This document shows positions 1 through 59,768 of a stretch of DNA of 64,000 nucleotides, one piece after another (within the stretch, counting starts at the first letter, position 1; each line of letters starts with the position of its first letter). A program made the position numbers and the translations under genes. The notes under the pieces were generated by a model, which saw only the letters and a program-made list of their open reading frames with translations, made no database searches and was not told the DNA's origin. The stretch lies in contig JAQWZU010000057.1 of NCBI GenBank assembly GCA_029253285.1, positions 1 through 64,000 on the forward strand, in the 5' to 3' direction. The stretch is from Akkermansiaceae bacterium. GTDB lineage: Bacteria > Verrucomicrobiota > Verrucomicrobiia > Verrucomicrobiales > Akkermansiaceae.

Positions 1-3000
1 TACATGTGGCTGAGAGACTTCATGTCGGGCTTCGGCAGGAAGAGGTTTACCGATTGGGATTGATCGATCCACTTTTGGCGTCTCGCGGCGGCGTCGATGA
101 TCGCTTGGTAGCCGACTTCGAAGACGGTTTTATGCTTGGCCTTGAGGTGCTCGGGGATTCCTTCAATGTCGGCGAGTTCGCCGTTGAAGTATTTGAGCTG
201 GTCGATCATTTCGGAACTCCAGAGGCCTTCCTTCTTGAGGTCGTTGACGAGGACCGGATTGAGGACGGTGAAGTCGCCACCGAGATTACTCTTTACAAAC
301 AAGTTGGTGTAGTTGGGCTCGATACAGGGAGTGGTGCCCATAATGTTTGAAATGGTGGCGGTCGGCGCGATGGCGAGGACGTTGGAGTTGCGCATGCCGT
401 TCTGGGCGATGCTCTCGCGGACGGGACGCCAGTCCATTTTGCCGCCACGGGGAACTTCAACCTTCACTCCCCTTTCGTCTTCGAGGAGATCGACGGTGTC
501 CTGTGGCAGGATGCCGCGATCCCACTTGGAGCCTTTGTAGGAATTGTAAGTTCCGCGCTCTCCGGCGAGTTCGCTGCTGGCGCTGTAGGCGTAGTAGCTA
601 ATCGCTTCCATAAACTCGTCGTTGAAATCAACGGCGGCTTCGGAAGCGAATTGGAGGTTCTTCTTGAAGAGCGCATTCTGGAGACCCATGACGCCTAGCC
701 CGATGGGACGGTGACGGCTGTTGGCGGTCTTGGCGGCTTCGGTGGGGTAAAAGTTGATGTCGATGACATTGTCGAGAGCGCGGATGGCCACGGTGACGGT
801 CTCGCGGAGCATATCGTGATCGAGCATGCCATCCTTGGTGATGTGGGTGTCAAGAACGACGGAGCCCAGGTTACACACAGCGGTCTCTTCATCGGAAGTG
901 TTGAGAGTGATCTCGGTGCAGAGATTACTGGAGTGAATGACGCCGGCATGGTCCTGCGGGCTGCGGAGGTTGCAGGGATCCTTGAAAGTGATCCAGGGAT
1001 GACCGGTTTCAAAGATCATCTTGAGCATGCGCTTCCAGAGATCGATGGCCTCGACCTTACGGGACCAAATCTTGCCTTCTTCGGCCATCGCTTCGTATTC
1101 GGTGTAGCGTTGCTCGAAGGCCTTGCCATAGAGATCGTGGAGATCGGGGCATTCATTAGAGCGAAGAAGAGTCCACTGCTGGCGGGCTTCCATACGCTTC
1201 ATGAAGAGGTCGGGAATCCAGTTCGCGGTATTCATGTCGTGCGTGCGGCGACGTTCGTCACCGGTATTCACGCGAAGTTCGAGAAAGTCCTCGATGTCAT
1301 TGTGCCAGGACTCGAGGTAAGCGCACCCGGAGCCGCGACGCTTGCCACCTTGGTTGACGGCGATGAGCTGGTCGTTGTGGAGCTTCAGGAAAGGAATGAC
1401 GCCCTGGGATTCCCCATTGGTGCCCTGAATGTATCCTCCGGTGCCGCGAACAGCGGTCCAGGATCCACCAAGTCCCCCGGCCCACTTGCTGAGGAAGGCA
1501 TTCTCGGCAATGCCGCGATGCATGATAGATTCGATGGAGTCATCGACCTTGTAGAGGTAGCAGCTCGAGAGCTGGGAATGGAGGGTTCCGGAATTGAAGA
1601 GCGTCGGAGTGGAGGAACAGAAGCGGCGGCCTTTGTAGAGGTTGTAAAGGCGGATGACCCAGTCTTCGGCGTTGGTTTTCTCAGCCTTGAAAAGTCCCAT
1701 CGCGACGCGCATCCAGAAGAACTGGGGCGTTTCCATGCGGCGGGGCTTGTCGCCGGTCTTGTCGACGTTGAGGTAGCGATCGTAGAGGGTCTGGATACCG
1801 AGGAAATCGAAGTCGAGGTCGGCGGACGGATCGAGAGCATCGGCGAGACGGTCGAGGTCGTATTTCTCGAGAATTTCAGGCGAGATGCGTTTGATCTCGA
1901 TGCCGTGCTTGAGGTAAGACTTGAAGTTTTCCCTGTGAGCCTGCTTGAGAGACTCGACACCGTCTTTCTGAATATTCCAAGGCAGGACCTCCTCGTAGAT
2001 GTAAGAGAGAAGGATGCGGCCGGCGAACTTGGACATGTCGGCATCCTTTTCGAGGAGAGTCTTGGAATTAAGAATAATGGTCTTCTTGAGGTCGCCGGCG
2101 GAGATCTCGGTGCCGATTGAACGTCGGAGTTCCTTTTCGATATCCTCTTCGGAGACGGAGAGCTTGAGTCCGATCATGGCGAACTGGATGCGCTTCTTGA
2201 GCTCGGTGCCATCCCAGAAATCGGATCTCCCATCTTCAGTGGTGACGGTAACGAAAGACTCCTGAGCAGGGTCTTCAGGTTGCGCGGCATTTTCCTCGCG
2301 ATGGCGTGCACGCTCTTCACGGTAGCGGAAGTAGTGACGTGCGACATCAAAATGCTCCTGACGCATGAGTTCGTTTTCAACGAGATCCTGAATGTCCTCG
2401 ATGTGAACGAAAGCCTGGTCGCCAGTGCGCACCTTGGTGGTGACCGCTTGGGCGATCTTGGCAGCGGGTGTGGGGTCGAGCTTGAGTGTGAGGAAAGCGC
2501 GGGAAACGGCTTGCTCGATCTTGGTCTCGGACCAGGGGACGACGTTGCCATTACGACGGATGAGGCGCACGGGCATTTCCTGCGGTTCTTCGTCAATGGA
2601 AATTTCGCCGGTGCGTTCGAGCGAGCGCTTGAAGACGAGAGACTTCGCGACGTCGTGTGCGTCGTTCTCGATAAGAGCTTTTTCGATGAGGAGATAAAGG
2701 TCGTTTTGGCTGAGCTTCAAGTTGCCGCCGCGCTGGACCTGACGCATGAGAGAAGAGGAAACACGATGTGCGACGGAAGAAACGAAGGAGCGGTTCTTCT
2801 CGGAGAAGATGGTGTCTTCGGGCTCGTTACGGGAGATGAGGAGGTCGGTAAGAGATTCGCCAATGGCATCGGCGACATCGGCAAGCGAAAAGCTTTCTTC
2901 CTGACCGCCCCGAGTGACGACGATTTCAGGAACGGGAGAGCGGAGCGAGGTGTCGAGGGTTTCACGCCAGGCGAAGGCGGATGATTTATCGGCAAAGCGG

Positions 3001-3056
3001 GTGGCGACGGTTTCTTTGAGGGCGAGATCTTCTTCGAGTGTGATTGAACGGTACAT
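1..3056 (-). CDS. nrdA: Class I ribonucleoside-diphosphate reductase, alpha subunit (3' end outside window)
   Basis: Catalytic subunit that reduces ribonucleoside diphosphates to deoxyribonucleotides in the cytoplasm. The minus frame is open from the ATG at 3054-3056 to the window edge (1018 codons, no stop). Residues about 43-145 look like a degenerate ATP-cone and about 161-260 like a full ATP-cone (allosteric activity site). The catalytic barrel shows LSSC (Cys499), the NLCTE motif (Asn711, Cys713, Glu715) and the partner Cys728, matching the radical and redox cysteines of E. coli NrdA. The ATPTATISNIMGTTP stretch is also typical. The C-terminal Tyr-Tyr radical relay and tail cysteines lie beyond position 1. 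It follows nrdB on the same strand after 459 bp, the reverse of the usual nrdA-nrdB order. Family assignment is secure. Confidence 0.97.
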   Translation of the reverse strand, partial: MYRSITLEEDLALKETVATRFADKSSAFAWRETLDTSLRSPVPEIVVTRGGQEESFSLADVADAIGESLTDLLISRNEPEDTIFSEKNRSFVSSVAHRVSSSLMRQVQRGGNLKLSQNDLYLLIEKALIENDAHDVAKSLVFKRSLERTGEISIDEEPQEMPVRLIRRNGNVVPWSETKIEQAVSRAFLTLKLDPTPAAKIAQAVTTKVRTGDQAFVHIEDIQDLVENELMRQEHFDVARHYFRYREERARHREENAAQPEDPAQESFVTVTTEDGRSDFWDGTELKKRIQFAMIGLKLSVSEEDIEKELRRSIGTEISAGDLKKTIILNSKTLLEKDADMSKFAGRILLSYIYEEVLPWNIQKDGVESLKQAHRENFKSYLKHGIEIKRISPEILEKYDLDRLADALDPSADLDFDFLGIQTLYDRYLNVDKTGDKPRRMETPQFFWMRVAMGLFKAEKTNAEDWVIRLYNLYKGRRFCSSTPTLFNSGTLHSQLSSCYLYKVDDSIESIMHRGIAENAFLSKWAGGLGGSWTAVRGTGGYIQGTNGESQGVIPFLKLHNDQLIAVNQGGKRRGSGCAYLESWHNDIEDFLELRVNTGDERRRTHDMNTANWIPDLFMKRMEARQQWTLLRSNECPDLHDLYGKAFEQRYTEYEAMAEEGKIWSRKVEAIDLWKRMLKMIFETGHPWITFKDPCNLRSPQDHAGVIHSSNLCTEITLNTSDEETAVCNLGSVVLDTHITKDGMLDHDMLRETVTVAIRALDNVIDINFYPTEAAKTANSRHRPIGLGVMGLQNALFKKNLQFASEAAVDFNDEFMEAISYYAYSASSELAGERGTYNSYKGSKWDRGILPQDTVDLLEDERGVKVEVPRGGKMDWRPVRESIAQNGMRNSNVLAIAPTATISNIMGTTPCIEPNYTNLFVKSNLGGDFTVLNPVLVNDLKKEGLWSSEMIDQLKYFNGELADIEGIPEHLKAKHKTVFEVGYQAIIDAAARRQKWIDQSQSVNLFLPKPDMKSLSHM

Positions 3057-3233
3057 TGGAATGGGGCTGATGAGTTGTTATTTGGATGTTGGAGGTCAGC
3101 AGTGATGAAGTTTGAATATTAATGGTGCTGACTTCCGGGTTAATGTTTTTTGCGAGTTTTAGGATTCGCTTCAAGACTGTGGGTCAAGGATTGAAGCTTG
3201 GGTGACATAATTTTGGTTTCGGCAATCATGTGA

Positions 3234-3476
3234 TCACCTTTTTTCTAGAAGAGGCTGGTTGAGCCCTTTGAGAGTGGACTGAAGAATGCAAAGTTAAGTC
3301 CGGAGCTCAACGCTGGATCCTTCGACTATATTGGAGGGGATTGAGACGGAACCACGTTTCATTTAGCTTCGGAGGGCATAATTATTTGAGCTTTTAAGGC
3401 TGACACAGAAATCGACAACAAGCCGGGAGCTTCGTTTCCAAACATCAAAATCTTCGAATGACTGAATCTTACTTAT
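3234..3476 (-). pseudogene. Decayed four-helix-bundle protein gene (23S rRNA IVS / S23 family)
   Basis: The 459-bp nrdB-nrdA gap holds no intact gene. On the minus strand one frame reads IQSFEDFDVWKRSSR, then MKRGSVSIPSNIVEG, then ELRT and LCI, which are the conserved blocks of the four-helix-bundle family (usually about 120 residues). It is dead: the expected start ATG reads ATA (3474-3476), two TAA stops sit where family members usually have Gln (ALR-S-Q-M and ELRTQL), and the segment between IVEG and ELRT is shortened. All these point changes fit C-to-T or G-to-A transitions. The motif match is direct reading; the family name is from knowledge of its consensus. Confidence 0.7.
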
Positions 3477-3515
3477 TCCGAAAGCTGATGACTCCCTACT
3501 TCCAACTACTGATTT

Positions 3516-4613
3516 TTAAAGATCGTCGTCGGAATAGGCGGCGTCTTCTAGCGCGGAGGCTTTTTGGTATTCGGTGACTTTACCTTCGAAGAAATTCTGC
3601 TCCTTTTTGAGGTCAATTGCTTCGGAAAGCCATGGGAAAGGGTTCTCGGTGTTGCCGCCGGCGAGTGGCTCAAGGTGGCAATTGACGAGACGACGATCGG
3701 AGATATAATCGATGTATTGCTCGAACTCGACAATGGAGAGTCCGACCGAATCAACAGGGAGACAGTCGCGAATGAATTCTTTCTCGAGGCGAACTCCTTC
3801 GGCCATGGTCTGGCGAAGATCTTCCTTGAATTCGGGAGTCATGATGTCGGGATTTTCGACAACGAGAGAATTCAAAAGCTGACGGAAGACATCGATGTGA
3901 TTGGACTCGTCACGGAGGGTGTAGCGGAACATTTGACCGATGCCGGGGAACTTGTTCTGACGAGAGAGGGAGAGGATCATTCCGAAGAGGCCGTAGAACT
4001 GGGTTCCTTCCATCACCTGACCGAACATGAAAATATTCTTGGCCAGAGCCTGCTTGTTTTCGAGGAGGGTAAGATCAACGTCCCGACGGAGCGAGCGGGA
4101 GTTGGAAACGACGAAGTTATTCTTGGCCTTAATGGTGGGAATATCTTCGAACATGGCCTCGCATTCGTGTGGATTGATACCGAGAGAAGAAATCATGTAG
4201 ACGAGAGAATCGGCGTGAATGTTTTCCTCGTGAGCGTGACGACCGAGAACGAGCTTGAGTTCGGGAGCGGTTACAAGCTCTCGTACGACGTGAAGAATGT
4301 TGTCACCCACGATGCCTTCGGCCGCGGAAAAATAGCCGATACCCATCTTAATGATCCAGCGCTCGACGTCAGAAATCTCTCCGCCACGCCACTGCTCAAC
4401 GTCCTTCTGCATTTGGACATCTTCGGGCTCCCAATGATTACCCTTCATTGTCTTGTAAAGATCGTAGGCCCACTGGTATTTCAGAGGCAAAATGTTGAAA
4501 AACATGGTTTCGCGCCCGTTGATAACGGATTTGGCGGCGATGGCGGCGTCGGCTTTCTCCTTATCGAGGACAAAAGTGCGGTCTCCCAGGGTGATTGTTG
4601 TGGTATCGGACAT
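3516..4613 (-). CDS. nrdB: Class I ribonucleotide reductase beta subunit, class Ic-like (Leu at the radical site)
   Basis: Ferritin-like radical-generating subunit, 365 aa. The dimetal ligands are all present: Glu99 (Asp in E. coli), Glu130, His133, Glu202, Glu236 and His239. Four residues after His133, where E. coli has radical Tyr122, this protein has Leu137. Chlamydia trachomatis, the class Ic type with a Mn/Fe cofactor, has Phe there and also Glu as first ligand; a Leu variant belongs to the same R2c group by family knowledge. The tail keeps a Tyr (VTEY) and an acidic end SDDDL for binding NrdA. It starts at ATG 4611-4613 and is the first gene before nrdA. NrdR-like boxes lie 125-172 bp upstream. 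The Mn/Fe assignment is inferred, not shown. Confidence 0.96.
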   Translation of the reverse strand: MSDTTTITLGDRTFVLDKEKADAAIAAKSVINGRETMFFNILPLKYQWAYDLYKTMKGNHWEPEDVQMQKDVEQWRGGEISDVERWIIKMGIGYFSAAEGIVGDNILHVVRELVTAPELKLVLGRHAHEENIHADSLVYMISSLGINPHECEAMFEDIPTIKAKNNFVVSNSRSLRRDVDLTLLENKQALAKNIFMFGQVMEGTQFYGLFGMILSLSRQNKFPGIGQMFRYTLRDESNHIDVFRQLLNSLVVENPDIMTPEFKEDLRQTMAEGVRLEKEFIRDCLPVDSVGLSIVEFEQYIDYISDRRLVNCHLEPLAGGNTENPFPWLSEAIDLKKEQNFFEGKVTEYQKASALEDAAYSDDDL

Positions 4614-7697: not shown

Positions 7698-7774
<77 letters not shown>

Positions 7775-10311: not shown

Positions 10312-13300
10312 ATGATCCGTGTCCTAATTTTCCTCACCCTGCCGCTCACCGCTGCTGGAAAGATCAGCTACAACCGCGACATCCGTCCCATCCTCTCGGA
10401 GAACTGCTTTTTCTGTCACGGCTTCGATAAGGAAAAACGCGAAGCCGGCCTTCGTCTCGACACCTTCCAAGGAGCTACCAGTCGAAAATCCTCGGCCATC
10501 GTTCCGGGCAAGCCCGAAGAGAGCGAATTAATCTACCGGATCTTCACCGACGCTGAAGATGATCACATGCCGCCCCTCGACTCGGCCTATCGCCTTACGA
10601 GAGAGCAAAAGGAAACGCTCAAACAATGGATCAAGGAAGGTGCGGAATACGAAGAACATTGGGCCTATCAAAAACTCACCCGCCCCGAAGTCCCAGCTCT
10701 CGCCAAACACCCTGTCGATGCCTTCCTTAAACGCACTTGGGACGAGCAAAAAGTCAAGCCCGTCAAAAAAGCCTCCCCGCGCGTTCTTCTTCGTCGACTT
10801 TCCTACGACCTTCGCGGACTTCCGCCCGCGCCCGAAGAAGTCGCCTCCTTCGAAAAAGATCCCTCGCCGGAACACTACAAAAAGTTCGTCGATAGATGGC
10901 TCGCCTCTCTCGAGCACGCCGAGCACCAGGGGCTTCTCTGGCTCGATCTCGTTCGTCACGCCGACTCCAACGGCATGGTTTCCGACGAACCCATCGCCTC
11001 CGCGCCTTACCGAAAATACGTCATCGAGGCCTTCCGCGACAACATGCCCTTTGATCAATTCACCCGCGAGCAACTCGCCGGGGATCTTCTTCCCGATCGA
11101 AATAATCGCACCCTCACCGCTTCCGCCTACAACCGCATCGTCAATACGAATTGCGAAGCCGGCGTCATTGAAAAAGAAGCTCTCTATGCACTCAAGGGCG
11201 AGCACGTCCGCGCCCTTGGCACAGTCTGGATGGGCACCACCACCGGCTGCGCCGAATGCCACGATCACAAATACGATCCTATCTCCGCCAAAGACTATTA
11301 CTCCCTCGCCGCCTTCTTCGACGACCTCATCGAGGCCGGCGTCTACGAACCCGGAGACCGTCGCGTTCCGCTCCACTACCTTCACGAAAAACCCGCTGAC
11401 ATCACTCGCGAACACCAACTCGCCAGAGAAATCGACGAAATACGTGAGAAGCTTTACTCCGCCGCCATCGACAAAGAAAAATTTGCAGTCTGGAAAAAGA
11501 AAATCTTCGCAGATGAAAAAGCGGCCGGAGCGGACAAGAAGCCTGTCGACTGGCCTTGGTTCCCCTCAAAACTTGGCGCCGTGCACATTCTTAAAGGAGA
11601 CTTTGCGCAATTACCCCAAGGCCGAAAAACCTCAGGCCCAAAGGACACGATCACCCGTCACTACGCCGGCGAAACTCTCGTCTCCAAACCCGAGGGAACC
11701 AACAACGCCTTCTTCACCCACGTCACTCTTGATCCCAAAAACATGCCCGAGTTTGTCGGTTTCCAAATCGTCAACGGCGCCTACCGCCGCGTCGGCTGGC
11801 ATCAGGACTACCACATCACCTACTTCTGGGGACCCAAAGACCATCCACTTCTAAAACAAAACCAACCCTGGCTTTCATCGAAGAAAATCTACCACATGGG
11901 ACCACTCCCCGAAGCCGGCAAGAAAGTCCGCTTGGAGGTTCCCAAAGCCAAATTCGGCAAAGCGTCCTACGTTCCACAGGTCATGGCTTGGATTCATGCC
12001 GGTGGCACCGTGACTTGGGGCGATTCCGGCTACGTCACCACCGCGGCCCAGGCCTTTAAAAACCGCAATGCTGGATCAGCCTACCGCTACTTTTGGGAAC
12101 TCCCCCTCAATCGCGATGATCGAAAGGACTTTCATTCGCTCTTGATGGGTTCACTCAAAAAGTCACGCGAAAGCCGCCGTGAGATTCACCAAAAAATCAT
12201 CAACATCGCCTTCCGCGAATCGATCAATCCGGAACTCACCCAAAAAGTCACCGACCTCTACCGCGAGATCTACCACCTCCGCCGCGACGCTCTTCCAACT
12301 CTTGTCAGCAAGGTCGGTTCTCCCAAGAAAACCCACGCTCTCACCCGAGGAAACTTCATGGACGAATCGGGACCGCAAGCCCTCCCCGGGCTTCCCGCTC
12401 ACTTCAGCAAATCTTTCTCCGGAGACAAACGCCTGACCCGACTCGATCTCGCGAACTGGATCATGTCGAAAGACAACCCCCTCACTGCCCGCGTCTTTGT
12501 CAATCGTCTCTGGCACCAATTCTATGGACGCGGTATTAGCGAGACTCTTGAGGACTCCGGCAATCAGGGCGACTGGCCGTCACACGTTCATCTTCTCGAT
12601 TGGCTTGCCATCGAATTCCAACAATCCAATTGGAACATCCGTCATATGATTCAGCTTCTGACCACCTCGGAGGCCTACCAGCTCTCTTCGATTCCAACTT
12701 ACAAGCTCACCGAAATGGATCCCACTAACCGCCTTCACGCCCGCCAGGGAAGGCATCGTCACAGCGCCGAGGAAATTCGCGACTCCGCCCTTCACGCGGC
12801 CGGTCTCCTCAAGCTCACCAAAGAGATTCCCACCGCCTCCTTCTTCCCTTACCAACCCGATCCCTATTGGGCCAAATCGAACAAGGTCATGTTCGGCTCG
12901 CGATATCAAATCTGGGAAACCAACCTCGGCGACGACCAATACCAGCGTTCTCTCTACACCTTTTGGAAGCGCCAAAACATCCACCCCGCCATGCTCGCTC
13001 TTGATGCGCCAACCCGCCAGGAATGCACCGCCCGCCGCACCATCACGAACACACCCGCTCAAGCCCTCGCTCTCCTCAATGATCCGCAATTCGTGGAAGC
13101 AGCCCGTGTCCTGGCCCAAAGAATCCTGACTGAATCTTCCGGAAATCAACGAATCGACAAGCTCTTCCAGCTCACCCTCCAACGTCCCCCATCGCCCGCC
13201 GAGAAAATAGAAATCCAAACCCTCCTCGAACAACTCACCGAACAATACAAGGAAAGCCCCGAAGACGCCGCCGCCCTCCTGAAAATCGGCCAGTATCCCA

Positions 13301-13389
13301 GCACTAAATTAGATCCCATCGAACACGCTACGTGGACTGGCGTCAGTCGGGTGACACTCAATCTTCATGAATTTTTAACCAGGAATTAA
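10312..13389 (+). CDS. Secreted PSCyt1/DUF1549/DUF1553 protein (PSD1 type) 1
   Basis: 1025 aa. After a short signal peptide (MIRVLIFLTLPLTAA) comes a planctomycete-type cytochrome c domain with CFFCH (Cys32, Cys35, His36), then DUF1549 with a second CAECH motif (Cys313, Cys316) in the CxxCHDHKYDPI block, a middle linker of about 300 residues, and a DUF1553 C-terminus (LTARVFVNRLWHQFYGRG; SLYTFWKRQNIHPAM; TNTPAQALALLND). The family is secreted, haem-binding and of unknown biochemical function, almost always next to DUF1501. Here DUF1501 follows after 18 bp. Haem binding is inferred from the CxxCH motifs. Confidence 0.93.
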   Translation: MIRVLIFLTLPLTAAGKISYNRDIRPILSENCFFCHGFDKEKREAGLRLDTFQGATSRKSSAIVPGKPEESELIYRIFTDAEDDHMPPLDSAYRLTREQKETLKQWIKEGAEYEEHWAYQKLTRPEVPALAKHPVDAFLKRTWDEQKVKPVKKASPRVLLRRLSYDLRGLPPAPEEVASFEKDPSPEHYKKFVDRWLASLEHAEHQGLLWLDLVRHADSNGMVSDEPIASAPYRKYVIEAFRDNMPFDQFTREQLAGDLLPDRNNRTLTASAYNRIVNTNCEAGVIEKEALYALKGEHVRALGTVWMGTTTGCAECHDHKYDPISAKDYYSLAAFFDDLIEAGVYEPGDRRVPLHYLHEKPADITREHQLAREIDEIREKLYSAAIDKEKFAVWKKKIFADEKAAGADKKPVDWPWFPSKLGAVHILKGDFAQLPQGRKTSGPKDTITRHYAGETLVSKPEGTNNAFFTHVTLDPKNMPEFVGFQIVNGAYRRVGWHQDYHITYFWGPKDHPLLKQNQPWLSSKKIYHMGPLPEAGKKVRLEVPKAKFGKASYVPQVMAWIHAGGTVTWGDSGYVTTAAQAFKNRNAGSAYRYFWELPLNRDDRKDFHSLLMGSLKKSRESRREIHQKIINIAFRESINPELTQKVTDLYREIYHLRRDALPTLVSKVGSPKKTHALTRGNFMDESGPQALPGLPAHFSKSFSGDKRLTRLDLANWIMSKDNPLTARVFVNRLWHQFYGRGISETLEDSGNQGDWPSHVHLLDWLAIEFQQSNWNIRHMIQLLTTSEAYQLSSIPTYKLTEMDPTNRLHARQGRHRHSAEEIRDSALHAAGLLKLTKEIPTASFFPYQPDPYWAKSNKVMFGSRYQIWETNLGDDQYQRSLYTFWKRQNIHPAMLALDAPTRQECTARRTITNTPAQALALLNDPQFVEAARVLAQRILTESSGNQRIDKLFQLTLQRPPSPAEKIEIQTLLEQLTEQYKESPEDAAALLKIGQYPSTKLDPIEHATWTGVSRVTLNLHEFLTRN

Positions 13390-13407
13390 ACTCAACCATT
13401 ACTCATC

Positions 13408-14790
13408 ATGAGCAATATCAATTTTCCTCGCCGCGATTTCTTCGCCCGTTCCTCATCCGCCCTCACGGGCACCGCTTTCGCCTCTCTCCTCTTCAAGGAT
13501 GGCTTCGCCCAGCAGACCAAGGATTTCGATCACACACCCAAAGCCAAGCGAGTCATCTACCTCTACATGGCCGGTGGCCCGTCGCAATTTGAGAGTTTCG
13601 ATGACAAGCCGAAGCTTCGTGAAAACAATGGAAAGCCTATCCCAAAGGAGCTGACTGAAGGGATTAAATTCGCTTTCCTCCAGCACTCCGCGCTCAAGTG
13701 TTTTGGCTCGAAAGTCGAATTCAAAGAATGCGGACAATCGGGACAGCAGATTTCCAGCCTTCTCCCCAACATTCAAAAGATTGCCGACGACATCTGCATC
13801 GTTCGTACCCAGCAAACCGATCAGGTCAATCATGACCCGGCTCACGCCTTCATGAATACCGGCACCGCGATTCCCGGCCGTCCAAGCATGGGATCCTGGG
13901 TCACCTACGGACTCGGTCACATCACCGACAACCTCCCTTCCTTCGTCGTAATGCGCTCCGGCCCCGAAGGACAACCAATCCCGCAAACCGCTTGGAACGC
14001 CGGCTTCCTTCCCGGCAAGCACACCGGCGTCGAGTTCTACTCCAAAGGCGTTCCGCTCAACTACCTCACTTCGCCCAAGGGAATCTCAAAGACCACCCAA
14101 CGCGCCTCTCTCGACACCCTCGCCCGCCTCAACAAACATCATCACGAAACGGTCGCCGACCCCGAGATCATGACTCGCCTGGCGCAGTATGAGCTGGCCT
14201 ACAAGATGCAAGCCAGTGTCCCGGACCTCGCGGACTTCTCCGGTGAGTCGAAAGCGACCCGTGAACTTTACGGCGTCGGAGACAAACCTGACGGAACCTT
14301 TGCCTCCAACTGCCTCATGGCGCGCCGTATGGCCGAACGCGGCGTGCGTTTTGTGCAACTCTATCACTCGGGCTGGGACCATCACGGCAATGTCATGGGC
14401 GGCATGAAATCCCGATGCAAAGACGTCGATCAAGGCTCCGCCGCTCTCATCACCGATCTCAAACAACGCGGCCTCCTTGATGACACCCTCGTCATCTGGG
14501 GCGGTGAATTCGGACGCACCCCGATGTCACAAGGCAGCGGCCGCGACCACCACACCAAGTCCGGCTCCATGTTCCTCGCCGGCGGAGGAATTAAAGGTGG
14601 CGTCACCTACGGCGAAACCGATCCCTTCGGCTTCACCGCCGCCCACGATCCCTTCCACGTCCACGACTTCCACGCCACCGCCCTCCACCTCCTCGGCATC
14701 GAGCACAAAAAACTCGTCTTCAAATACAAAGGCCGTAATTTCCGCCTCACCGATGTGCACGGCCATGTCGTGGAGAAGATTCTGACGTAG
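13408..14790 (+). CDS. DUF1501 domain-containing protein 1 (Tat-exported)
   Basis: 460 aa with an N-terminal twin-arginine signal (RRDFFARSSSALTG) and the DUF1501 core, a fold related to sulfatase/alkaline phosphatase: [65 protein letters not shown] and the ending RLTDVHGHVVEKIL. Conserved Asp and His residues in these blocks would bind metal. The substrate is unknown. It is paired with the preceding PSD1 gene and followed after 68 bp by a sugar transporter, suggesting a role in sugar catabolism. Confidence 0.93.
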   Translation: MSNINFPRRDFFARSSSALTGTAFASLLFKDGFAQQTKDFDHTPKAKRVIYLYMAGGPSQFESFDDKPKLRENNGKPIPKELTEGIKFAFLQHSALKCFGSKVEFKECGQSGQQISSLLPNIQKIADDICIVRTQQTDQVNHDPAHAFMNTGTAIPGRPSMGSWVTYGLGHITDNLPSFVVMRSGPEGQPIPQTAWNAGFLPGKHTGVEFYSKGVPLNYLTSPKGISKTTQRASLDTLARLNKHHHETVADPEIMTRLAQYELAYKMQASVPDLADFSGESKATRELYGVGDKPDGTFASNCLMARRMAERGVRFVQLYHSGWDHHGNVMGGMKSRCKDVDQGSAALITDLKQRGLLDDTLVIWGGEFGRTPMSQGSGRDHHTKSGSMFLAGGGIKGGVTYGETDPFGFTAAHDPFHVHDFHATALHLLGIEHKKLVFKYKGRNFRLTDVHGHVVEKILT

Positions 14791-23710: not shown

Positions 23711-24030
23711 ATGTTTTCGAAACTCTTCCTCGTCCTCACTGCAACGATTCTCTTGCCTGCCAACTGTCACGCCCGGAATCACGCCCAGGCAGATGCGGCT
23801 TTGAAAATGAATCCAATCAGTGTCGTCGATAAAAAGCTCACCCCTCCCAGCGGAGACAAGCATGGCCACCCCAGCCTTGCCTTGGTTTCTGGAACGACAA
23901 GTCGGATCCCGACAGCGAAGCCTACCTCGGATCCGACGCCAAAAAATGGCCCGCCAACTCTCTAAAAAAGACTCATCCCGGGAAATCGCTCCTTGATCCT
24001 TCCATCGGGAAACTATCATACATCTTTCCA
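23711..24030 (+). pseudogene. Frameshifted fragment resembling the start of an alginate lyase family protein
   Basis: The frame starts with a signal peptide (MFSKLFLVLTATILLPANCHA) and continues ISVVDKKLTPPSGDKH, similar to the PPSGDKHDY block near the N-terminus of alginate-lyase-type proteins (PF05426). After HGHPSLA the frame ends soon at 23965, while another frame gives GFWNDKSDPDSEAYLG, which could continue the domain (YWWP-like). The catalytic region is missing entirely. It lies immediately before a PSD1 gene. The family link is a weak motif match. Confidence 0.35.
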
Positions 24031-24034
24031 CAAA

Positions 24035-27000
24035 ATGACGCTTCGCAAACTCACCGTCTTTCTGGCCTTATCCGTTCAGTCCCCGGGATTGGGCGCTGAA
24101 TCCGTAGGCTACAACACCGATGTCCGCCCCATTCTCTCGGACAAATGCTTCCTTTGCCACGGCCCGGACAAAACCAACAACAAAGCCGGTCTGCGCCTCG
24201 ACGACGAAGCCTCCGCTTACGCCGCGCTTAAGGATACGCCAGAGAAGCACGCCATCGTCCCCGGCTCACTCGAAAACTCCGAGGTTTGGCTGCGCATCAA
24301 TTCAAACGACCCCGATGAGGTCATGCCCACTCCGGAATCTAATCTCGCCCTCACCGATTCCGAAAAAGAAATCATCGGAGCTTGGATCAAACAAGGCGCC
24401 AAATACGAACCTCACTGGGCCTTCGTTCCCCTTCCTGAAAAAATCCCTGTCCCACCCACCAACTCCGCGAACTGGCCAAGAAACCCCATCGACAATTTCG
24501 TCGCCGCCAAGCTTCAGGCCAACGATCTGAAGCCCTCGCCCGAAGCCGCCCCCCTTCGCTGGTTCCGCCGCGTTTGCTTCGACCTCACCGGACTCCCTCC
24601 GAACCAGGCACAACTCGACACCTTTCAATCTGATCTCAAATCATCCCCTGCCAAGGCTCACGAAAAGGCTGTGGACGCCCTCCTCGCCACCATCGAATAC
24701 GCCGAGCACATGACGCTCGATTGGCTCGATGCCGCCCGCTACGCCGACACCTGGGGCTACCACTCCGACATGAATTTCACCGCCTGGCCTTACCGCGACT
24801 GGGTCGTGCGAGCCTATCAGCAAGACCTCCCTTACAAAGACTTCGTCACCTGGAACATCGCCGGAGATCTTCTTCCCAACGCCACCAAAGATCAAAAGCT
24901 CGCTACGGCATTTAATCGCTTTAACCGCATGACCAATGAGGGTGGTTCCGACGCCCTCGAGTTTTTCGTCGATGGCGTCTCCGATCGCGTCCACACCATG
25001 GGCACGGCATTCCTTGGCCTTACCATGGAATGTTCAAAATGCCACGATCACAAATACGATCCCATCACCGCCAAGGACTACTACCAGCTTTTCTCCTTCT
25101 TTAATTCCATCAATGAAACCGGCCTCTACATCCACGGAAACATCTCCCCTCCGCCCAGCCTTCTCCTCCCCACTGATGCCCAGGAAGCCGACCTCAAAAA
25201 GCGCAAGAAACGTGTCACCGCAGCACAACAAAAACTAGCTCAACTGGACAAAGATCTCGGCTCGAAATTCCAGGAATGGAAAGCTACCGTTCTCAATCCC
25301 ACTTCATCAGAAGAGGGAACCCCACCACTACCCCTCAAGCTTTCCCTCGCCGACCTCAGCGGCCGCTTCGATTTCGACAAAGATCACAAACAACCACTCG
25401 AATCGCGCACGCCCCCGCCTTCCGGCCCCGTGAAGAAGGACAAAAACAATCGCCTCATCAAACCCAAACCACCCAGCCTGAGCCTTGCTGACATCCACTA
25501 CACCAAAGGCCCCAAAGGCCACGGCTCGGCCATCATCCTCGACGGCGACCGCGGAGCTTCCACTGGCAACTTTTTCATCAAAGATCGCTACACCCCCTTC
25601 TCGGTCGGACTGTGGCTCAAGGACACCTTGCGCGAAAAGCGCTCCGTCGTCATCTGGCAGCGCGCCCACGGAACGGAAGTGGGCTACAACGGCATCGACC
25701 TCCGCACCGAAAATGGATTCCTGACCGCACGCGTCTTCCGCCATTGGCCCGACAACGGTGTCGGCATCAAAACCATCGCCCAGATCCCGAAAAACGAATG
25801 GCATCACATCACCGTCACTTACGACGCCTCCAGCAACGCCGAAGGGCTCGCCATGTATAAAAATGGCCTCCCCCTCGAAACTAAAATCGTCGGCGGCAAA
25901 CTTTACAAAAGTGTCAACACCAGAACCTACACCGCTGGTAACTTCACCCTCGGCGCCATCTTCCGCGGCCCTGGATTCAAGGGAGGGCACGTCGACGAAC
26001 TCATCACCTTCGACCGGGCTCTCACTCCGCTCGAAGTCAGTCATCTCGCCGGCCTTGAAGACATCGATCAAAGCGCCCGCAAAGCCGCCGACAAAGATCT
26101 CTATCCTTACTACCTTTCCAATCACAACAAAGACTACCGTAAAGCCCTCGACGAACATGCCGCCGCCCAAAAGGCCCTCGTCCAACTCGAAGATACCCTC
26201 ACCGAAGTCCCCGTCATGGAAGAGATGGACACCCCACGCCCCGCCTACCTTCTCGCCCGTGGTGAGTTCACCGCCGAGCGAACCGAGGAAAACAAAGTCA
26301 CCCGCGACACGCCCGCCTTCCTCCTACCCTTCCCCAAAGGCGCTCCACGTAATCGCCTCGGCCTAGCCCAATGGCTCACTCTTCCAAATCACCCGCTCAC
26401 AACCCGCATTTACATCAACCGCATCTGGCAACAGCTCTTCGGAAATGGCCTCGTCGGCACGACGGAAAACTTCGGTTTGCAAGGCGACCTCCCCACCCAC
26501 CCCGGGCTCCTCGACTGGCTCTGCCGCGACTTCATCAGTCACAAATGGAGCACCAAGCACCTCGTCAGACAGATCGCCCTCTCCGCGACCTACCGGCAGG
26601 ACTCTGTGCTTACACCCGAGCTCCAGTCACTCGACATCGCCAACAAGCTCCTCGCCCGCGGCCCTTCCCACCGTCTCACCGGCGAAGCAATCCGCGACGC
26701 CGCTCTTCTCACTTCCGGGCTCCTGAGCGACAAACGCGGCGGCCCACCGGTCAAACCTTACGACCCGGTTCACAATCAAAAAGGCAACCTTGATCACGTC
26801 CACCGGCGCTCCCTCTACAGCTACTGGCGCCGCACCAAGCCGCAGAACAATATGATCATCTTCGACAAGCCATCGCTCGAAGTCTGCAGCGTGCAACGCA
26901 GCCGCACCAACAGCCCGGCCCAGGCGCTCGTGCTTCTCAACGACACCCAATTCGTCGAAGCAGCCCGCAATCTCGCTGCCAACATGCTTCAAAAACATGG

Positions 27001-27256
27001 CGATGACGCATCCCGGATCAAAGCCGCCTGGAAAACTGTCACCAGCCGCGAAACCACCGAGAAAGAGCTCGAACTCCTCACCGCCATTCTCGCCGAGCAA
27101 CGAAACTATTTCAAAGCCAACCCCAAGGAGGCCGAAGCATTTCTCAAAATCGGGCTCAAGCCCTTACCAAAGGATCTCGACCCCATCGAGTCCGCCGCTC
27201 TTACCGTCGTCTGTCAGGCGACTTACAACACCGACGCAGCTGTCTGGAAACGCTAA
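24035..27256 (+). CDS. Secreted PSCyt1/DUF1549/LamG/DUF1553 protein (PSD1 type) 2
   Basis: 1073 aa from ATG 24035, which gives a clean signal peptide; an upstream in-frame start adds 14 unlikely residues. Cytochrome c motif CFLCH (Cys38, Cys41), DUF1549 with CSKCHDHKYDP (Cys333, Cys336), then a LamG/concanavalin domain (about 495-675: AIILDGDRGASTGNFFI; WHHITVTYDASS; GGHVDELITFDRALTP) inserted before DUF1553 (TTRIYINRIWQQLFGNG; SLYSYWRRTKPQNNM; TNSPAQALVLLND). The inserted LamG suggests glycan binding. DUF1501 follows after 12 bp. Enzyme activity is not established for the family. Confidence 0.93.
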   Translation: MTLRKLTVFLALSVQSPGLGAESVGYNTDVRPILSDKCFLCHGPDKTNNKAGLRLDDEASAYAALKDTPEKHAIVPGSLENSEVWLRINSNDPDEVMPTPESNLALTDSEKEIIGAWIKQGAKYEPHWAFVPLPEKIPVPPTNSANWPRNPIDNFVAAKLQANDLKPSPEAAPLRWFRRVCFDLTGLPPNQAQLDTFQSDLKSSPAKAHEKAVDALLATIEYAEHMTLDWLDAARYADTWGYHSDMNFTAWPYRDWVVRAYQQDLPYKDFVTWNIAGDLLPNATKDQKLATAFNRFNRMTNEGGSDALEFFVDGVSDRVHTMGTAFLGLTMECSKCHDHKYDPITAKDYYQLFSFFNSINETGLYIHGNISPPPSLLLPTDAQEADLKKRKKRVTAAQQKLAQLDKDLGSKFQEWKATVLNPTSSEEGTPPLPLKLSLADLSGRFDFDKDHKQPLESRTPPPSGPVKKDKNNRLIKPKPPSLSLADIHYTKGPKGHGSAIILDGDRGASTGNFFIKDRYTPFSVGLWLKDTLREKRSVVIWQRAHGTEVGYNGIDLRTENGFLTARVFRHWPDNGVGIKTIAQIPKNEWHHITVTYDASSNAEGLAMYKNGLPLETKIVGGKLYKSVNTRTYTAGNFTLGAIFRGPGFKGGHVDELITFDRALTPLEVSHLAGLEDIDQSARKAADKDLYPYYLSNHNKDYRKALDEHAAAQKALVQLEDTLTEVPVMEEMDTPRPAYLLARGEFTAERTEENKVTRDTPAFLLPFPKGAPRNRLGLAQWLTLPNHPLTTRIYINRIWQQLFGNGLVGTTENFGLQGDLPTHPGLLDWLCRDFISHKWSTKHLVRQIALSATYRQDSVLTPELQSLDIANKLLARGPSHRLTGEAIRDAALLTSGLLSDKRGGPPVKPYDPVHNQKGNLDHVHRRSLYSYWRRTKPQNNMIIFDKPSLEVCSVQRSRTNSPAQALVLLNDTQFVEAARNLAANMLQKHGDDASRIKAAWKTVTSRETTEKELELLTAILAEQRNYFKANPKEAEAFLKIGLKPLPKDLDPIESAALTVVCQATYNTDAAVWKR

Positions 27257-36486: not shown

Positions 36487-39400
36487 CTATCGCTTATTGA
36501 TTTCGATCATTCCGCCTTTGATCGCCGGCTGTTCAACCTTACTCGTGGAGCCATCACTCCAGCGAACCTCCAAGGAAGTAACGCTTTCACCTTCGGCCAG
36601 GCCGAAATGAACCACCGCCGGGGACTGACTCAAAAAACTCCCGCCGGCACATACTTCAGCCGATCGACCTTGATTCAAGACCACTCGCGCGCCTATACCC
36701 TGTGGGTTTTGCGCCCCCCCTTTGAGATGAATCGTCACTCCCGGATGCTTCTTGGTTTTGAGGCCCATCATGGGAGAATTATTGATTCCAAAACTAAGAT
36801 CCGGATGGCCGTCGCCATCGAGGTCGGGCGTGGTCAGGCTCTTGGAGTCGCCGGAAACATTGATGCCACTGCGGTTCGGCCAAACAGGCTCGAAAATTGT
36901 GCGACCCCCTTCTTTCCTCCCTCGCAATAGAAGAGAGAGCCCACCGGCCATGCGTCCCGTTTCCCGTTGCGGAGAGAAGAAGTTTTGCGCGAGCACAATA
37001 TCGACCTGCCCGTCGCCATCGAAGTCCTGAACAACCACCCCGAATGAAGGAGCCAACTGGGCTTCCCACGAGAGAGCCTCGGGAGAGAAGTTGCCCTTGC
37101 CATCATTCCAAAAAATCGAAGTTTCAAGATGGCTCGCCGAAAATTTCTTCACTGCCTTGAGTCTCTCCGGAGTATAAATATCTTGAAGGGTGGCCGCGGC
37201 AAAACCTTTGTATGTATTAAATTTATTGGCCAAACTGGGGATTGCTGCCGTCGAACAACTTTTTCCACGAATCGGGTAAACAATATCTCCTTCGAATTCG
37301 GCTTCGATGAGGTGCTTGCGCCCTGAATTGGCGACGTCACCATAGAAGAGGAGCGCCGGTTTTTCGGGTGAGGCATGATACTTGGTATTCAGCCCAAAGT
37401 TCGTGACGACGAGGTCGAAATCTCCGTCTCCATCGAGATCAGCCGAGCTGACTCCATTCCACCAACCTCTTCGGGTTTCCGCGCCGGCACTTTGAGGCAG
37501 AGCTTTCAATTTCCCTTCGGTGTTCTTGAAAATCCCCACGGTGTCCCATTCGCGAGCGAGAACAAGATCGATCCACCCATCATTATCGATATCCGACCAG
37601 ACCGCGCTGGTCACAATTCCGGCGCGTGAATTCGAAAGAGCCGGAGCAAGGTCGGAAGTAACATCGACAAAGCGGCCACTACCTTCGTTGCGTAAAAGCT
37701 GGCTGGCTGCTGCGGTTGGGTAGTATCCGGGAACTGTGCGGCCACCAATAAAAAGATCAAGATCTCCATCACGATCGAAATCAGCGGCGCTGACACAGCT
37801 TCCACTATGTCTCGCCAAAGGGAGAGCTCCCTTGGGAGCAAGGGTCATCTTTCCCCCCCCGTCATTCAGGTAAAGGCGATCCTGGAGACTATCTTCATCA
37901 TTCTCGCACTCGACCCCTCCGCTCACAATGTAGAGATCCTGATCTCCATCGCCGTCAGCATCGAAAAAGAGACAACCCATGTCCTCAAAATCTCCATCGT
38001 TCGGAAGAGGCATTGGTTTAAGCCCCCCTTGGCGGTCACGAAGAATGATCAGGCGCCCGGGAGCGCCCTTTCCCTGGCCAAGATAAAAATCGTCCACACC
38101 ATCGCCATTGACATCACTCCAAGCCTGCCCCGGACCGAACTGAGAAAGCTTGTTGGGGAGGAGGGGCTCCCGGGCAAAGTCATCGTAACGCTTCTCGGCA
38201 TGTTTCACTCGAGATAGAGACGGTAAGGCCTCAAAAACCAGTTCAGATTGAATGACCGGCGGGGTCGCATTGGCTCCCCCGCCTTCAACAATATGGTGGT
38301 GTCTTCCCGCATCGAGATTCTTGATTATCTGGGTTAAACCACTGGGCCAGTATAGTTCCAATCGAGCGGCGGTTGACGCTTCGCCCAATCCAAAATGCAA
38401 GATGGCCTGGTCACTTCCCAGGTATCCGCGGGAGGTCACGAGAGTTCGCAATTGCGGAGTCTCATCATCGTGATTCGTGAAGAGTTTAGCCTTCACTCCG
38501 AGTCCTTGCTTGTTGGACTTGGTTCCTTCAAAGGAGAGCGTGAGGCTGTTTCCGGCATCAGCTCCGGTATTGTGATAAATTGCCACCGGTCCATCAAGAC
38601 GCACGCTGACAATATCGAGCGCGCCATCCTGATCAAGATCACCTACGGCACAACCGTAGCTCATTCCGTAATAATCCAAGCCCCAGTCCTTCGAGGTGTT
38701 TTCAAAATTCATCCCACCGAGATTTCGAAAGACCCTGTTATGCTCTCTTAAAGGTGGGAGATGACGATAGCGCTCCCATTGGGTCAGTTTACGATCCTTT
38801 TTTTTCAATTCCTCGTCGTCATTCTCGTTGAAGTTTCGTGACATCCCACACTGGAAATAGGCATCGTTGAGACCATCATGATCGAAGTCACACAAACGAA
38901 CGGCCCAGGTCCAGTCCGTGCTGGCCAGACCGGAGAGAAAGGCCCCTTCTAGGAACCGCCCGTTTCCAGCGTTGAGAAAGAGACCGTTTCTCATGAGTTG
39001 AACGGGCTCTACGTTGTCCATAAACCATGCGAAGGCCGACATGCTCCCCATCGCCGTTTTCTGTTTAAAGTGATTACTCCCTGCCATATCAGCAATCAGG
39101 AAATCGGGCAGGCCGTCGGCATTGAGATCGCCGAAGTCAGCGCCCATGGAAAACCACGCGGTGTGGCCCACTGCCATGTCTACCACGTTCACGAAGGTGC
39201 CGTCTCCGCGGTTCACGTAAAGGCAATCGGCGTCCTGGAAGTCATTTCCCACCCAGAGGTCGAGCCAGCCGTCACCATTCCAATCCCACCAGGTTGCAGA
39301 AAGTCCGTGACCCCGATGGGTAATTCCAGCCGCCTTGTTGGCGACTTCAAATTTTCCAGCGCCGTTGTTTCGGCACAGGAGATCTGGACGCCCCACAACA

Positions 39401-40197
39401 ACGGACTCCCAATGACCTTCCCCAGTCCACTGATCTGCCCCGGTTTGCCGGGCATCGTAAAAGCGCTCAAACTTTTCGATCACTCTGGGCCTCCCATCAG
39501 GTCCCTGCTCAATAGTTTTCTCCGAAGGAAATCCTTCCGGACGATACCAACGATTAGTGAGAATATAGAGATCAAGATCGCCGTCGCGGTCGTAGTCGCA
39601 GAAAGATGGCGTATGGCTGGCATCAATGAAATCAAGACCCCATTCTTTCGCGGACTCAATAAAAGTGCCGTCACCCTTATTTAAAAAAAGTTGGTTGGGA
39701 GAAAGGTAGTTGCAAACGTAGAGATCGGTATCCCCGTCATTGTCAATATCAGCAGCGGCACATCCGATAGCCCAAGCGTCCCCTCCACCGACTCCAGCCT
39801 GACTGGTCACATCGGTGAACTGCATTCTTGACGTCTGACGATAGAGTTTGTTGGGAACAGGTCCGCCGGCGAACAAGATATCAGGTTTGGCATCTCCATC
39901 GAAGTCAGCAATCGCGACCCCTCCGGTAGACATTGAGGATGAATAAAGATACCGCAGCTCATGGCTTTCATCGATAGGATTGACAAAATCCACTCCACTT
40001 TTTGAGGTGTCGAGCTCGACGAAACGAGTCTCTGCGCTCGGAGGACGCTCCTTGAATGGCACGCTTTCCACGACGCTCTGCAAGACACTCTCAGAGCTCC
40101 CCTGATTGGATTCTGACTTCTGCGAATCACAGGAACAAAGGAAGCAGGAGATTCCGATAAGTGGGAAAATAAACTTAGGGAAGGCTATAAGGGTCAT
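36487..40197 (-). CDS. FG-GAP/VCBS repeat lipoprotein with two ASPIC/UnbV domains
   Basis: 1236 aa. The N-terminus (IGISCFLCSC) ends in a plausible lipobox with Cys23. Two tandem halves follow. Half 1 has FG-GAP calcium-binding repeats (DFDGDAKPDIL, DIDNDGDTDLYV, DYDRDGDLDLYI, DWNGDGWLDLWV, DLNADGLPDFLI, DLDQDGALDIVS) closed by an ASPIC/UnbV domain (about 555-640). Half 2 repeats this (DVNGDGVDDFYL, DADGDGDQDLYI, DFDRDGDLDLFI, DLDGDGDFDLVV, DFDGDGQVDIVL) with a second UnbV domain (about 1155-1235). It is a beta-propeller surface protein (CRTAC-like) that probably binds glycans or scaffolds enzymes. It lies downstream of the PEP-CTERM gene past a terminator. Confidence 0.92.
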   Translation of the reverse strand: MTLIAFPKFIFPLIGISCFLCSCDSQKSESNQGSSESVLQSVVESVPFKERPPSAETRFVELDTSKSGVDFVNPIDESHELRYLYSSSMSTGGVAIADFDGDAKPDILFAGGPVPNKLYRQTSRMQFTDVTSQAGVGGGDAWAIGCAAADIDNDGDTDLYVCNYLSPNQLFLNKGDGTFIESAKEWGLDFIDASHTPSFCDYDRDGDLDLYILTNRWYRPEGFPSEKTIEQGPDGRPRVIEKFERFYDARQTGADQWTGEGHWESVVVGRPDLLCRNNGAGKFEVANKAAGITHRGHGLSATWWDWNGDGWLDLWVGNDFQDADCLYVNRGDGTFVNVVDMAVGHTAWFSMGADFGDLNADGLPDFLIADMAGSNHFKQKTAMGSMSAFAWFMDNVEPVQLMRNGLFLNAGNGRFLEGAFLSGLASTDWTWAVRLCDFDHDGLNDAYFQCGMSRNFNENDDEELKKKDRKLTQWERYRHLPPLREHNRVFRNLGGMNFENTSKDWGLDYYGMSYGCAVGDLDQDGALDIVSVRLDGPVAIYHNTGADAGNSLTLSFEGTKSNKQGLGVKAKLFTNHDDETPQLRTLVTSRGYLGSDQAILHFGLGEASTAARLELYWPSGLTQIIKNLDAGRHHHIVEGGGANATPPVIQSELVFEALPSLSRVKHAEKRYDDFAREPLLPNKLSQFGPGQAWSDVNGDGVDDFYLGQGKGAPGRLIILRDRQGGLKPMPLPNDGDFEDMGCLFFDADGDGDQDLYIVSGGVECENDEDSLQDRLYLNDGGGKMTLAPKGALPLARHSGSCVSAADFDRDGDLDLFIGGRTVPGYYPTAAASQLLRNEGSGRFVDVTSDLAPALSNSRAGIVTSAVWSDIDNDGWIDLVLAREWDTVGIFKNTEGKLKALPQSAGAETRRGWWNGVSSADLDGDGDFDLVVTNFGLNTKYHASPEKPALLFYGDVANSGRKHLIEAEFEGDIVYPIRGKSCSTAAIPSLANKFNTYKGFAAATLQDIYTPERLKAVKKFSASHLETSIFWNDGKGNFSPEALSWEAQLAPSFGVVVQDFDGDGQVDIVLAQNFFSPQRETGRMAGGLSLLLRGRKEGGRTIFEPVWPNRSGINVSGDSKSLTTPDLDGDGHPDLSFGINNSPMMGLKTKKHPGVTIHLKGGAQNPQGIGARVVLNQGRSAEVCAGGSFLSQSPAVVHFGLAEGESVTSLEVRWSDGSTSKVEQPAIKGGMIEINKR

Positions 40198-53900: not shown

Positions 53901-54411
53901 GGCCGACTTCCGCGCCAAACTTCCCAAGGATGATCCCTTCGCCGAATGGAACGTTCTTTGTGAAACCGGTGGCGACGTCGACAAAGGAAAGGCCGCCTTC
54001 TACGGCCACGGCATCGCGCAATGCCAACGCTGTCACACCATGCACGGCGTCGGTGCCGACGTCGGCCCCGAACTCGGAGCCATCGGCAAGTCCAAAGACG
54101 CGAAGTATCTCCTCCGCTCCCTCGTCAATCCCGGCGCCGAAGTGGCCGAAGGATTCGGCTTGGGAACCGTCACCTTGAGGGACGGCACCGCCATCACCGG
54201 CACCATTCTCACCAAAGATGACAAAGGCAACTCCCGCGTAAAGATCGAGCAGAAGATCACCGTCATCGCCCCGGACAAGATCGCCAGCCAGACCACTCCC
54301 GTTTCGGCCATGCCTCCCATGGCTGGTATCCTCAACAAGCAGGAGATGCGCGACATGGTTGCCTATCTCCTTTCCTGCAAAGAGGACAAAACCGACGACG
54401 AGCACAAGTAG
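50989..54411 (+). CDS. PVC-type membrane-bound dehydrogenase / HEAT / cytochrome c protein
   Basis: 1140 aa with a short signal peptide (to about residue 20). An N-terminal propeller (about 25-460) has CIDGKNRVYAAETHRWR, GDGKADKTTVFRGDFNEP, GFAFGPDGKLYWSIGDRG and NYDQGDRER-like NDYDQGDRERILYL. Residues about 475-960 are HEAT repeats (RVRCRAQYALAERGKE; EIRANTARVLGNHAD; VAVRRAAVVALRR-like). The C-terminal cytochrome c domain has CQRCH (Cys1012, Cys1015), GVGADVGPELGAIG, and ends with a haem-pocket PPMAGILNKQEMRDMVAYLL. A secreted electron-transfer protein probably oxidising a sugar; paralogous in design to the protein at 41636-44629. The 148 bp after it show no clear gene. Confidence 0.9.
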   Translation: MNVSTLGRTAALTLVLPLQAQIKPSPEFPKIHIPEGTKITQFATADQVNNVTAICIDGKNRVYAAETHRWRVQVQDIRHGGKNNRYLRDRVNGDISTMTLKDREAYHKQWSGKEPDFLKWDQFDDQSEVIKVLEDTTGDGKADKTTVFRGDFNEPLAGPSGGLIEKDGTVYFAMIPGVYSLKDIDGDGKAEEVKTLVDGFGVRVSFSGHDLNGFAFGPDGKLYWSIGDRGYHVYQDGKTFSRPDSGGVFRSNPDGTEFEEFYINLRNPKEIVFDDFGNLFTVDNDYDQGDRERILYLVEHGDTGWRMGHQTLASFGGVAWDHLGSKPPRKEDQIDAWMNEGIWETRHDRQPAFVNPPIAYSVNGPCGLAYNPGVTTMPSKFDKNFFVVGYVANADRCVIENFSLEPNGAEFKLKTQEVFLKGIALTDIDWSYDGKLYISDYGGGWSRPNKGNIYAMTGDRKDNAAAVKEVAALFAKGFPNIDSKKLETLLDHADQRVRCRAQYALAERGKESLAIFQKALATENPLLRRIHGLWGIGQLAQKDPKLLSNLKGLLLDKEMEIRANTARVLGNHADHSQAYRSELIAAIDDSSTRVGGLAAIALANAKESKAVQPAIAFLERNADKDVVVRHSGIMVLAKAAQAAELAALKSHKSIAVRRAAVVALRRQQAPEISAFFDDTDEAVRQEAIRGAYDENVVGAYADLSDRAHTIAKRVTPKVKHHPLSARRALHAAWTLARPQDLKVIVDIVNDSSIDKRIRRDAITTLLDWNNPPVGDPVTGFARTLPRGRTKLPANLIKQLQPYFKSAPTDKEATELLARALKLVSQDKLAISSAQLKGYLNAKDAPEDARLEALNILAPLEKKNPKWKDELNALVSDKSDKIRSRARSLLVFLNPGAQSLKLLADTLKDKQTTLAEKQLTIKTLGTINKPEAGKLIAAELKKLIAQKLEAGLALDVVMAAEASKSPQARKALADFRAKLPKDDPFAEWNVLCETGGDVDKGKAAFYGHGIAQCQRCHTMHGVGADVGPELGAIGKSKDAKYLLRSLVNPGAEVAEGFGLGTVTLRDGTAITGTILTKDDKGNSRVKIEQKITVIAPDKIASQTTPVSAMPPMAGILNKQEMRDMVAYLLSCKEDKTDDEHK

Positions 54412-58257: not shown

Positions 58258-58353
58258 CCCCGTTATTCCATGATCAATCCTGCCGATTGGAAAGGGTTAA
58301 ATACCTTTCTTCGTATGTTTATCCCCTCCTACCAATCGTCCCAGACTTTCGCA

Positions 58354-59760: not shown

Positions 59761-59768
59761 TTCCCCCA

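What the first reader, a model, noticed from the sequence alone, without database searches (positions are those of the whole stretch)
3516..4613. NrdB with leucine at the tyrosyl-radical site
Leu137 stands at the E. coli Tyr122 position while all six metal ligands are kept and the first ligand is Glu99 rather than Asp, as in chlamydial class Ic NrdB. Class Ic uses a Mn(IV)/Fe(III) cofactor instead of a tyrosyl radical; Phe is the studied variant and Leu variants are little characterised. This links a verrucomicrobium to the chlamydial enzyme type.
Basis: partly seen in the sequence, partly recalled or inferred. Interest (0 to 1): 0.7.

Follow-up and report, generated by a model that had tools for sequence, protein, structure and literature searches.

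The report
Leucine-type, tyrosine-free ribonucleotide reductase subunit
This bacterium's only DNA-building-block enzyme lacks the tyrosine that usually holds the starting radical and has a leucine there instead, so it probably stores the oxidising power on a metal pair as the Chlamydia enzyme does; many related bacteria share this, and leucine variants have been noted before but, as far as we found, not studied.

Summary
The gene at 3516-4613 (minus strand) is an intact 365-aa class I NrdB with Leu137 at the E. coli Tyr122 / C. trachomatis Phe127 position, Glu99 as first ligand, all other metal ligands, and the radical-transfer chain (W61, D235, Y231, Y349). It is not a fluke: 166 distinct Leu-type sequences, from Verrucomicrobiota and from genomes labelled Armatimonadetes/Fimbriimonadaceae, all pair Leu with Glu; 19 others pair Phe with Glu; 25 pair Tyr with Asp. 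No other R2, R1/NrdJ, NrdD or NrdI was found in the genome, so this should be the working aerobic enzyme. Most likely a metal-centred (Mn/Fe) oxidant replaces the tyrosyl radical.

The Leu enzymes form a separate, strongly supported clade, probably sister to the chlamydial Phe clade (94/86), 38% identical to the C. trachomatis protein, with their own conserved residues (T232, Q205, L209); the phylum also holds chlamydial-type Phe enzymes. And Leu at this site is already recorded for R2c (Hogbom 2010, cited in PMC3824934) and class O. The cofactor is inferred, not shown.

The parts
3516..4613 (-). nrdB, class I ribonucleotide reductase radical-generating subunit, Leu type, 365 aa
   Evidence: NF005550 327 bits over its cut-off of 309; PF00268
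4203..4205 (-). codon CTC, Leu137, at the E. coli Tyr122 / C. trachomatis Phe127 position
4317..4319 (-). Glu99, first metal ligand (Ct Glu89; Asp84 in E. coli)
4224..4226 (-). Glu130, metal ligand (Ct Glu120)
4215..4217 (-). His133, metal ligand (Ct His123)
4008..4010 (-). Glu202, metal ligand (Ct Glu193)
3906..3908 (-). Glu236, metal ligand (Ct Glu227)
3897..3899 (-). His239, metal ligand (Ct His230)
4431..4433 (-). Trp61 (Ct Trp51, E. coli Trp48), radical-transfer and activation path
3921..3923 (-). Tyr231 (Ct Tyr222)
3909..3911 (-). Asp235 (Ct Asp226)
3567..3569 (-). Tyr349 (Ct Tyr338, E. coli Tyr356), C-terminal radical-transfer tyrosine
3..3056 (-). nrdA, catalytic subunit, cut by the contig end, with an N-terminal ATP cone, all-alpha domain and barrel; the near-identical relative L101 has a complete 1077-aa nrdA ending ECEACQ

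Best explanation
An O2-dependent class I ribonucleotide reductase whose radical-generating subunit keeps no tyrosyl radical. The buried two-metal site (E99, E130, H133, E202, E236, H239) reacts with O2; with leucine in place of the tyrosine there is nothing beside the metals to oxidise, so the oxidising equivalent stays on the metals, most likely as Mn(IV)/Fe(III) as in C. trachomatis. It is passed through W61, D235, Y231 and Y349 to the active-site cysteine of NrdA, encoded just downstream. Shown here: the residues, their conservation, the gene pair, the absence of another reductase, and a separate Leu clade. Inferred: the metal identity, the oxidation states, and that Leu is only an inert filler.
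For: All six ligands, the path residues and the C-terminal Tyr are kept in 176 of 178 Leu-type rows; the other two are tandem second copies lacking Tyr231. Absence of Tyr goes with Glu as first ligand in every Leu and Phe row. Nearest solved proteins are C. trachomatis Mn/Fe NrdB by sequence (257.8 bits) and by fold (E 1.2e-19). It is the only R2 and R1 in a 97%-complete genome, with no NrdD and no NrdI, so it must work. Class Ic: Mn(IV) at site 1 stands in for the redox-active Tyr (PMC8463856).
Against: Sister clade, not member, of the chlamydial clade. Second-shell residues differ in every Leu row: Thr232 for Ile223, Gln205 for Phe196, Leu209 for Gly200, which could change metal preference or activation. 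No metal data for any Leu enzyme were found. Metal use does not always follow phylogeny (PMC6187632).
Confidence: 0.65

Rival explanations
1. A metal-centred oxidant made of two manganese ions, Mn(III)/Mn(IV), as in class Id, activated by superoxide without NrdI.
For: Class Id also has Glu as first ligand, a metal-based oxidant and no NrdI; no NrdI was found in this genome.
Against: Class Id keeps a Tyr at this site and a Lys four residues after the Glu; here that position is Gly103 in 178 of 178 Leu rows. By sequence and fold the enzyme is far nearer the chlamydial protein than class Id structures.
Confidence: 0.17
2. A di-iron oxidant (Fe(III)/Fe(IV), long-lived intermediate X) carries out initiation.
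For: The same ligands can bind two irons; leucine would remove the usual sink of X. R2c scaffolds are known to mismetallate.
Against: In C. trachomatis maximal activity needs Mn plus Fe.
Confidence: 0.08
3. Another tyrosine (for instance Y231, or Y94, which is invariant in the Leu clade and Phe in the Phe clade) holds a stable radical.
For: Y94 and Y231 are invariant in the Leu clade apart from the tandem second copies, which lack Y231.
Against: Y231 is Tyr222 in C. trachomatis and in 18 of 19 Phe rows, so it is not special to the Leu clade; E. coli-type enzymes also have Tyr at position 94 without using it as the radical site (own knowledge).
Confidence: 0.07
4. A non-catalytic or regulatory R2 homologue, or an R2lox-type oxidase.
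For: Tyr-less R2 paralogues and R2lox exist.
Against: Only R2 in the genome, next to nrdA, C-terminal Tyr349 and tail kept; R2lox models score far below the reductase models.
Confidence: 0.03

Closest known systems
Class Ic NrdB (R2c) of Chlamydia trachomatis, PDB 1SYY, 4D8F/G, 4M1H/I
   Same: Fold, six ligands including Glu as first ligand, no Tyr at the radical site, W51/D226/Y222/Y338 path
   Different: 38% identity; Leu for Phe127; Thr/Gln/Leu for Ile223/Phe196/Gly200; C-terminal tail ending DDDL; sister clade
Leu/Ile/Val variants of R2c noted by Hogbom 2010 (as cited in PMC3824934)
   Same: Leu at the radical site of an R2c-like protein
   Different: Hogbom 2010 is not held, so it is unknown whether these very sequences were among them
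6Y2N R2 and haloarchaeal R2c (L186, L187)
   Same: Glu and Tyr-less site
   Different: Phe at the site, in the Phe clade
Class O RNR ferritin-like subunits (PMC9531940)
   Same: Phe or Leu at the radical site
   Different: Class O sequences were not compared here; described as minimal and with unusually short C-termini
Class Id NrdB (Flavobacterium, Leeuwenhoekiella)
   Same: Glu as first ligand, metal-centred oxidant
   Different: Tyr kept at the site and Lys at Glu+4; here Leu and Gly

Membership tests
Class I RNR radical-generating subunit | Ribonuc_red_sm domain, six metal ligands | tested here: met
Class I RNR radical-generating subunit | Partner NrdA and C-terminal radical-transfer Tyr | tested here: met
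   nrdA directly downstream; Tyr349
Class Ic (R2c), broad sense: no Tyr, Glu first ligand | Redox-inert residue at the radical site and Glu as first ligand | tested here: met
   L137, E99
Class Ic (R2c), strict sense | Phe/Glu pairing as stated in PMC8463856 | tested here: not met
   Leu/Glu, not Phe/Glu
Class Ic (R2c), by descent | Falls inside the clade of C. trachomatis R2c | tested here: not met
   Leu clade 100/99 lies beside, not inside, the chlamydial clade; joint clade 94/86, not starred
Class Ic (R2c) | Mn(IV)/Fe(III) cofactor, no tyrosyl radical in active enzyme | not testable with these tools
   needs purified protein
Class Id | Tyr/Glu pairing and Lys four residues after the Glu | tested here: not met
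   Leu137; Gly103 in 178 of 178
Class Ib / Ie | NrdI activase in the genome | tested here: not met
   no NrdI found
Class Ia/Ib | Tyr at the radical site with Asp first ligand | tested here: not met

The most novel reading that the evidence does not exclude
The Leu clade is an independently derived Tyr-less reductase subclass with its own cofactor behaviour (a different metal pair or activation route), marked by Leu137 with Thr232, Gln205 and Leu209 rather than the chlamydial set.
Probability: 0.2. Interest if true: 0.7.

Novelty: new member of a known kind. Interest (0 to 1): 0.38.

Why it matters
If it holds, metal-centred initiation is not a chlamydial or haloarchaeal oddity but the sole aerobic route to DNA precursors in this lineage and probably in much of Verrucomicrobiota and some Armatimonadota, mostly free-living bacteria; that would weaken the idea that the Mn/Fe cofactor is an adaptation to hosts or extremes. 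The Leu clade also gives a natural test of whether Phe127 has any role beyond being inert, and of which second-shell residues set the metal choice.

Tried and rejected
Sequencing error or decayed gene: rejected, Leu is fixed in 166 distinct sequences. Misalignment hiding a Tyr two residues on (Y139): rejected, Y139 aligns without gap to Ct Tyr129, is present in all 19 Phe rows, and is His in three Leu-type rows. Viral origin: scans of viral contigs found no Leu-type relative, and the best phage hits are below 40% identity; the two best phage types that were read are Tyr/Asp. Leu+Phe as one clade without the Tyr enzymes: rejected by AU test, p 0.0007. Phe alone as one clade: rejected, p 0.005. 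Hogbom 2010 could not be read. An early view that the second-shell set is the same as in Chlamydia was dropped.

Full report
Observation. The ORF at 3516-4613 on the minus strand codes for 365 aa and is a class I ribonucleotide reductase small subunit (PF00268; NF005550, 327 bits against a cut-off of 309). Its best solved relatives are the C. trachomatis R2c entries (257.8 bits), followed closely by 6Y2N (254.9 bits), which has Phe at the site. The alignment is ungapped around the metal site: E99, E130, H133 and L137 stand opposite Ct E89, E120, H123 and F127; E202, E236 and H239 complete the ligands; W61, Y231, D235 and Y349 correspond to Ct W51, Y222, D226 and Y338.

Genome context. The window is the first 64 kb of contig C118 of a 4.3-Mb genome, 97% complete. 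nrdA lies directly downstream in the same direction, cut by the contig end, with an N-terminal ATP cone. A near-identical gene pair in L101 (nrdB 99% identical) has a complete 1077-aa nrdA with a C-terminal CEAC motif. No second R2, no second NrdA or NrdJ barrel, no class III NrdD and no NrdI were found. The enzyme therefore should be functional and is probably essential; 3% of the genome is missing, so this is strong rather than absolute.

Relatives. In the same phylum, 90 of 289 sampled genomes have an R2 homologue. Among all aligned rows, 178 (166 distinct) have Leu with Glu, 19 Phe with Glu, 25 Tyr with Asp, 4 Tyr with Glu (the class Id pairing) and 2 Met with Glu (at least one, L214, also lacks the C-terminal Tyr, like R2lox). 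The Leu rows include cultured strains such as Haloferula, Pelagicoccus, Cerasicoccus and Geminisphaera, and genomes labelled Armatimonadetes/Fimbriimonadaceae. So Leu is a fixed property of a large group. Its perfect pairing with Glu, as for Phe, is what one expects if the first ligand and the radical site change together.

Phylogeny. With columns 99 and 137 left out, the Leu enzymes form one clade (100/99) in both trees. After removal of five long-branch rows the Leu clade is sister to the clade of Chlamydia, Verrucomicrobiota Phe enzymes, haloarchaea and 6Y2N, with support 94/86, which falls just short of the tool's trust threshold. Tyr/Asp enzymes of proteobacterial and cyanobacterial plasmids and a phage are nested inside the Phe clade; forcing Phe alone, or Leu plus Phe alone, into one clade is rejected (AU p 0.005 and 0.0007). 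Hence the verrucomicrobial Leu enzyme is not a chlamydial enzyme that changed one residue; it is a separate branch, and the Verrucomicrobiota also carry the real chlamydial type (L062-L070).

Second shell. The Leu clade differs from the Phe clade at sites next to ligands in every row: Thr232 (Ct Ile223), Gln205 (Ct Phe196), Thr204 (Ct Ile195), Gly100 (Ct Ser90), Tyr94 (Ct Phe84), and nearly always Leu209 (Ct Gly200) and Asn131 (Ct Ala121). That Ile223 lies by the radical site is taken from the E. coli pocket (Ile234), my own knowledge. The AlphaFold model (mean pLDDT 79, low in the last 30 residues) matches C. trachomatis Mn/Fe NrdB best, but coordinates could not be inspected, so these differences are not placed in space.

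Mechanism. Best reading: O2 oxidises a metal pair that itself keeps the oxidising equivalent, probably Mn(IV)/Fe(III), then passes it along W61-D235-Y231-Y349 to NrdA. In class Ic the Mn at site 1 replaces the redox-active Tyr. Class Id chemistry is the main rival; its Lys at Glu+4 is Gly103 in all Leu rows. The metal identity is not testable here.

Novelty. Leu, Ile and Val in place of Phe are documented in R2c by Hogbom 2010 as cited in PMC3824934, and Phe or Leu is recorded in class O subunits. The library held no study of a Leu-type enzyme and no paper on this enzyme in Verrucomicrobia, but most subscription papers are not held. The finding is therefore a new member of a known kind, with an under-studied clade as the interesting part.

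Noticed in passing
L233:7218-13030 (+) and L234:6312-12324 (-): Two Verrucomicrobiota genomes carry a tandem nrdB1-nrdB2-nrdA operon of Leu type. nrdB2 keeps all six ligands, W61 and Y349 but has Asn at Tyr231, Phe or Cys at Tyr207, and lacks the NFFE tail motif; perhaps a helper subunit like yeast Rnr4.
   Followed up: partly
L181, L188, L189, L190: Tyr/Asp enzymes of plasmids and a phage nest inside the Phe/Glu clade, suggesting the radical site was switched more than once, possibly with Tyr regained.
   Followed up: partly
L213: A divergent Phe/Glu enzyme from the phylum of the Fimbriimonadaceae genome with Trp at the Tyr222 position and a long branch.
   Followed up: no
window 3057-3515 (-): The 459-bp gap between nrdB and nrdA looks like a decayed gene of the 23S rRNA-intervening-sequence (four-helix bundle) family; only a weak match (E 0.013, below cut-off).
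   Followed up: partly
window 7698-7774 (-): tRNA-Pro (TGG), the only tRNA in the window.
   Followed up: no
window 36487-40197 (-): 1236-aa protein with about 11 FG-GAP repeats and two ASPIC/UnbV domains, no NCBIfam match.
   Followed up: no
window 10312-14790, 23993-27256, 41636-44629, 50989-54411: Several large proteins with PVC-type c-type cytochrome/heme-binding (CxxCH) domains, one beside a DUF1501 gene, typical of Verrucomicrobia/Planctomycetes.
   Followed up: no
window 58144-60899 (+): A sulfatase gene directly followed by a cytochrome P450-like gene.
   Followed up: no
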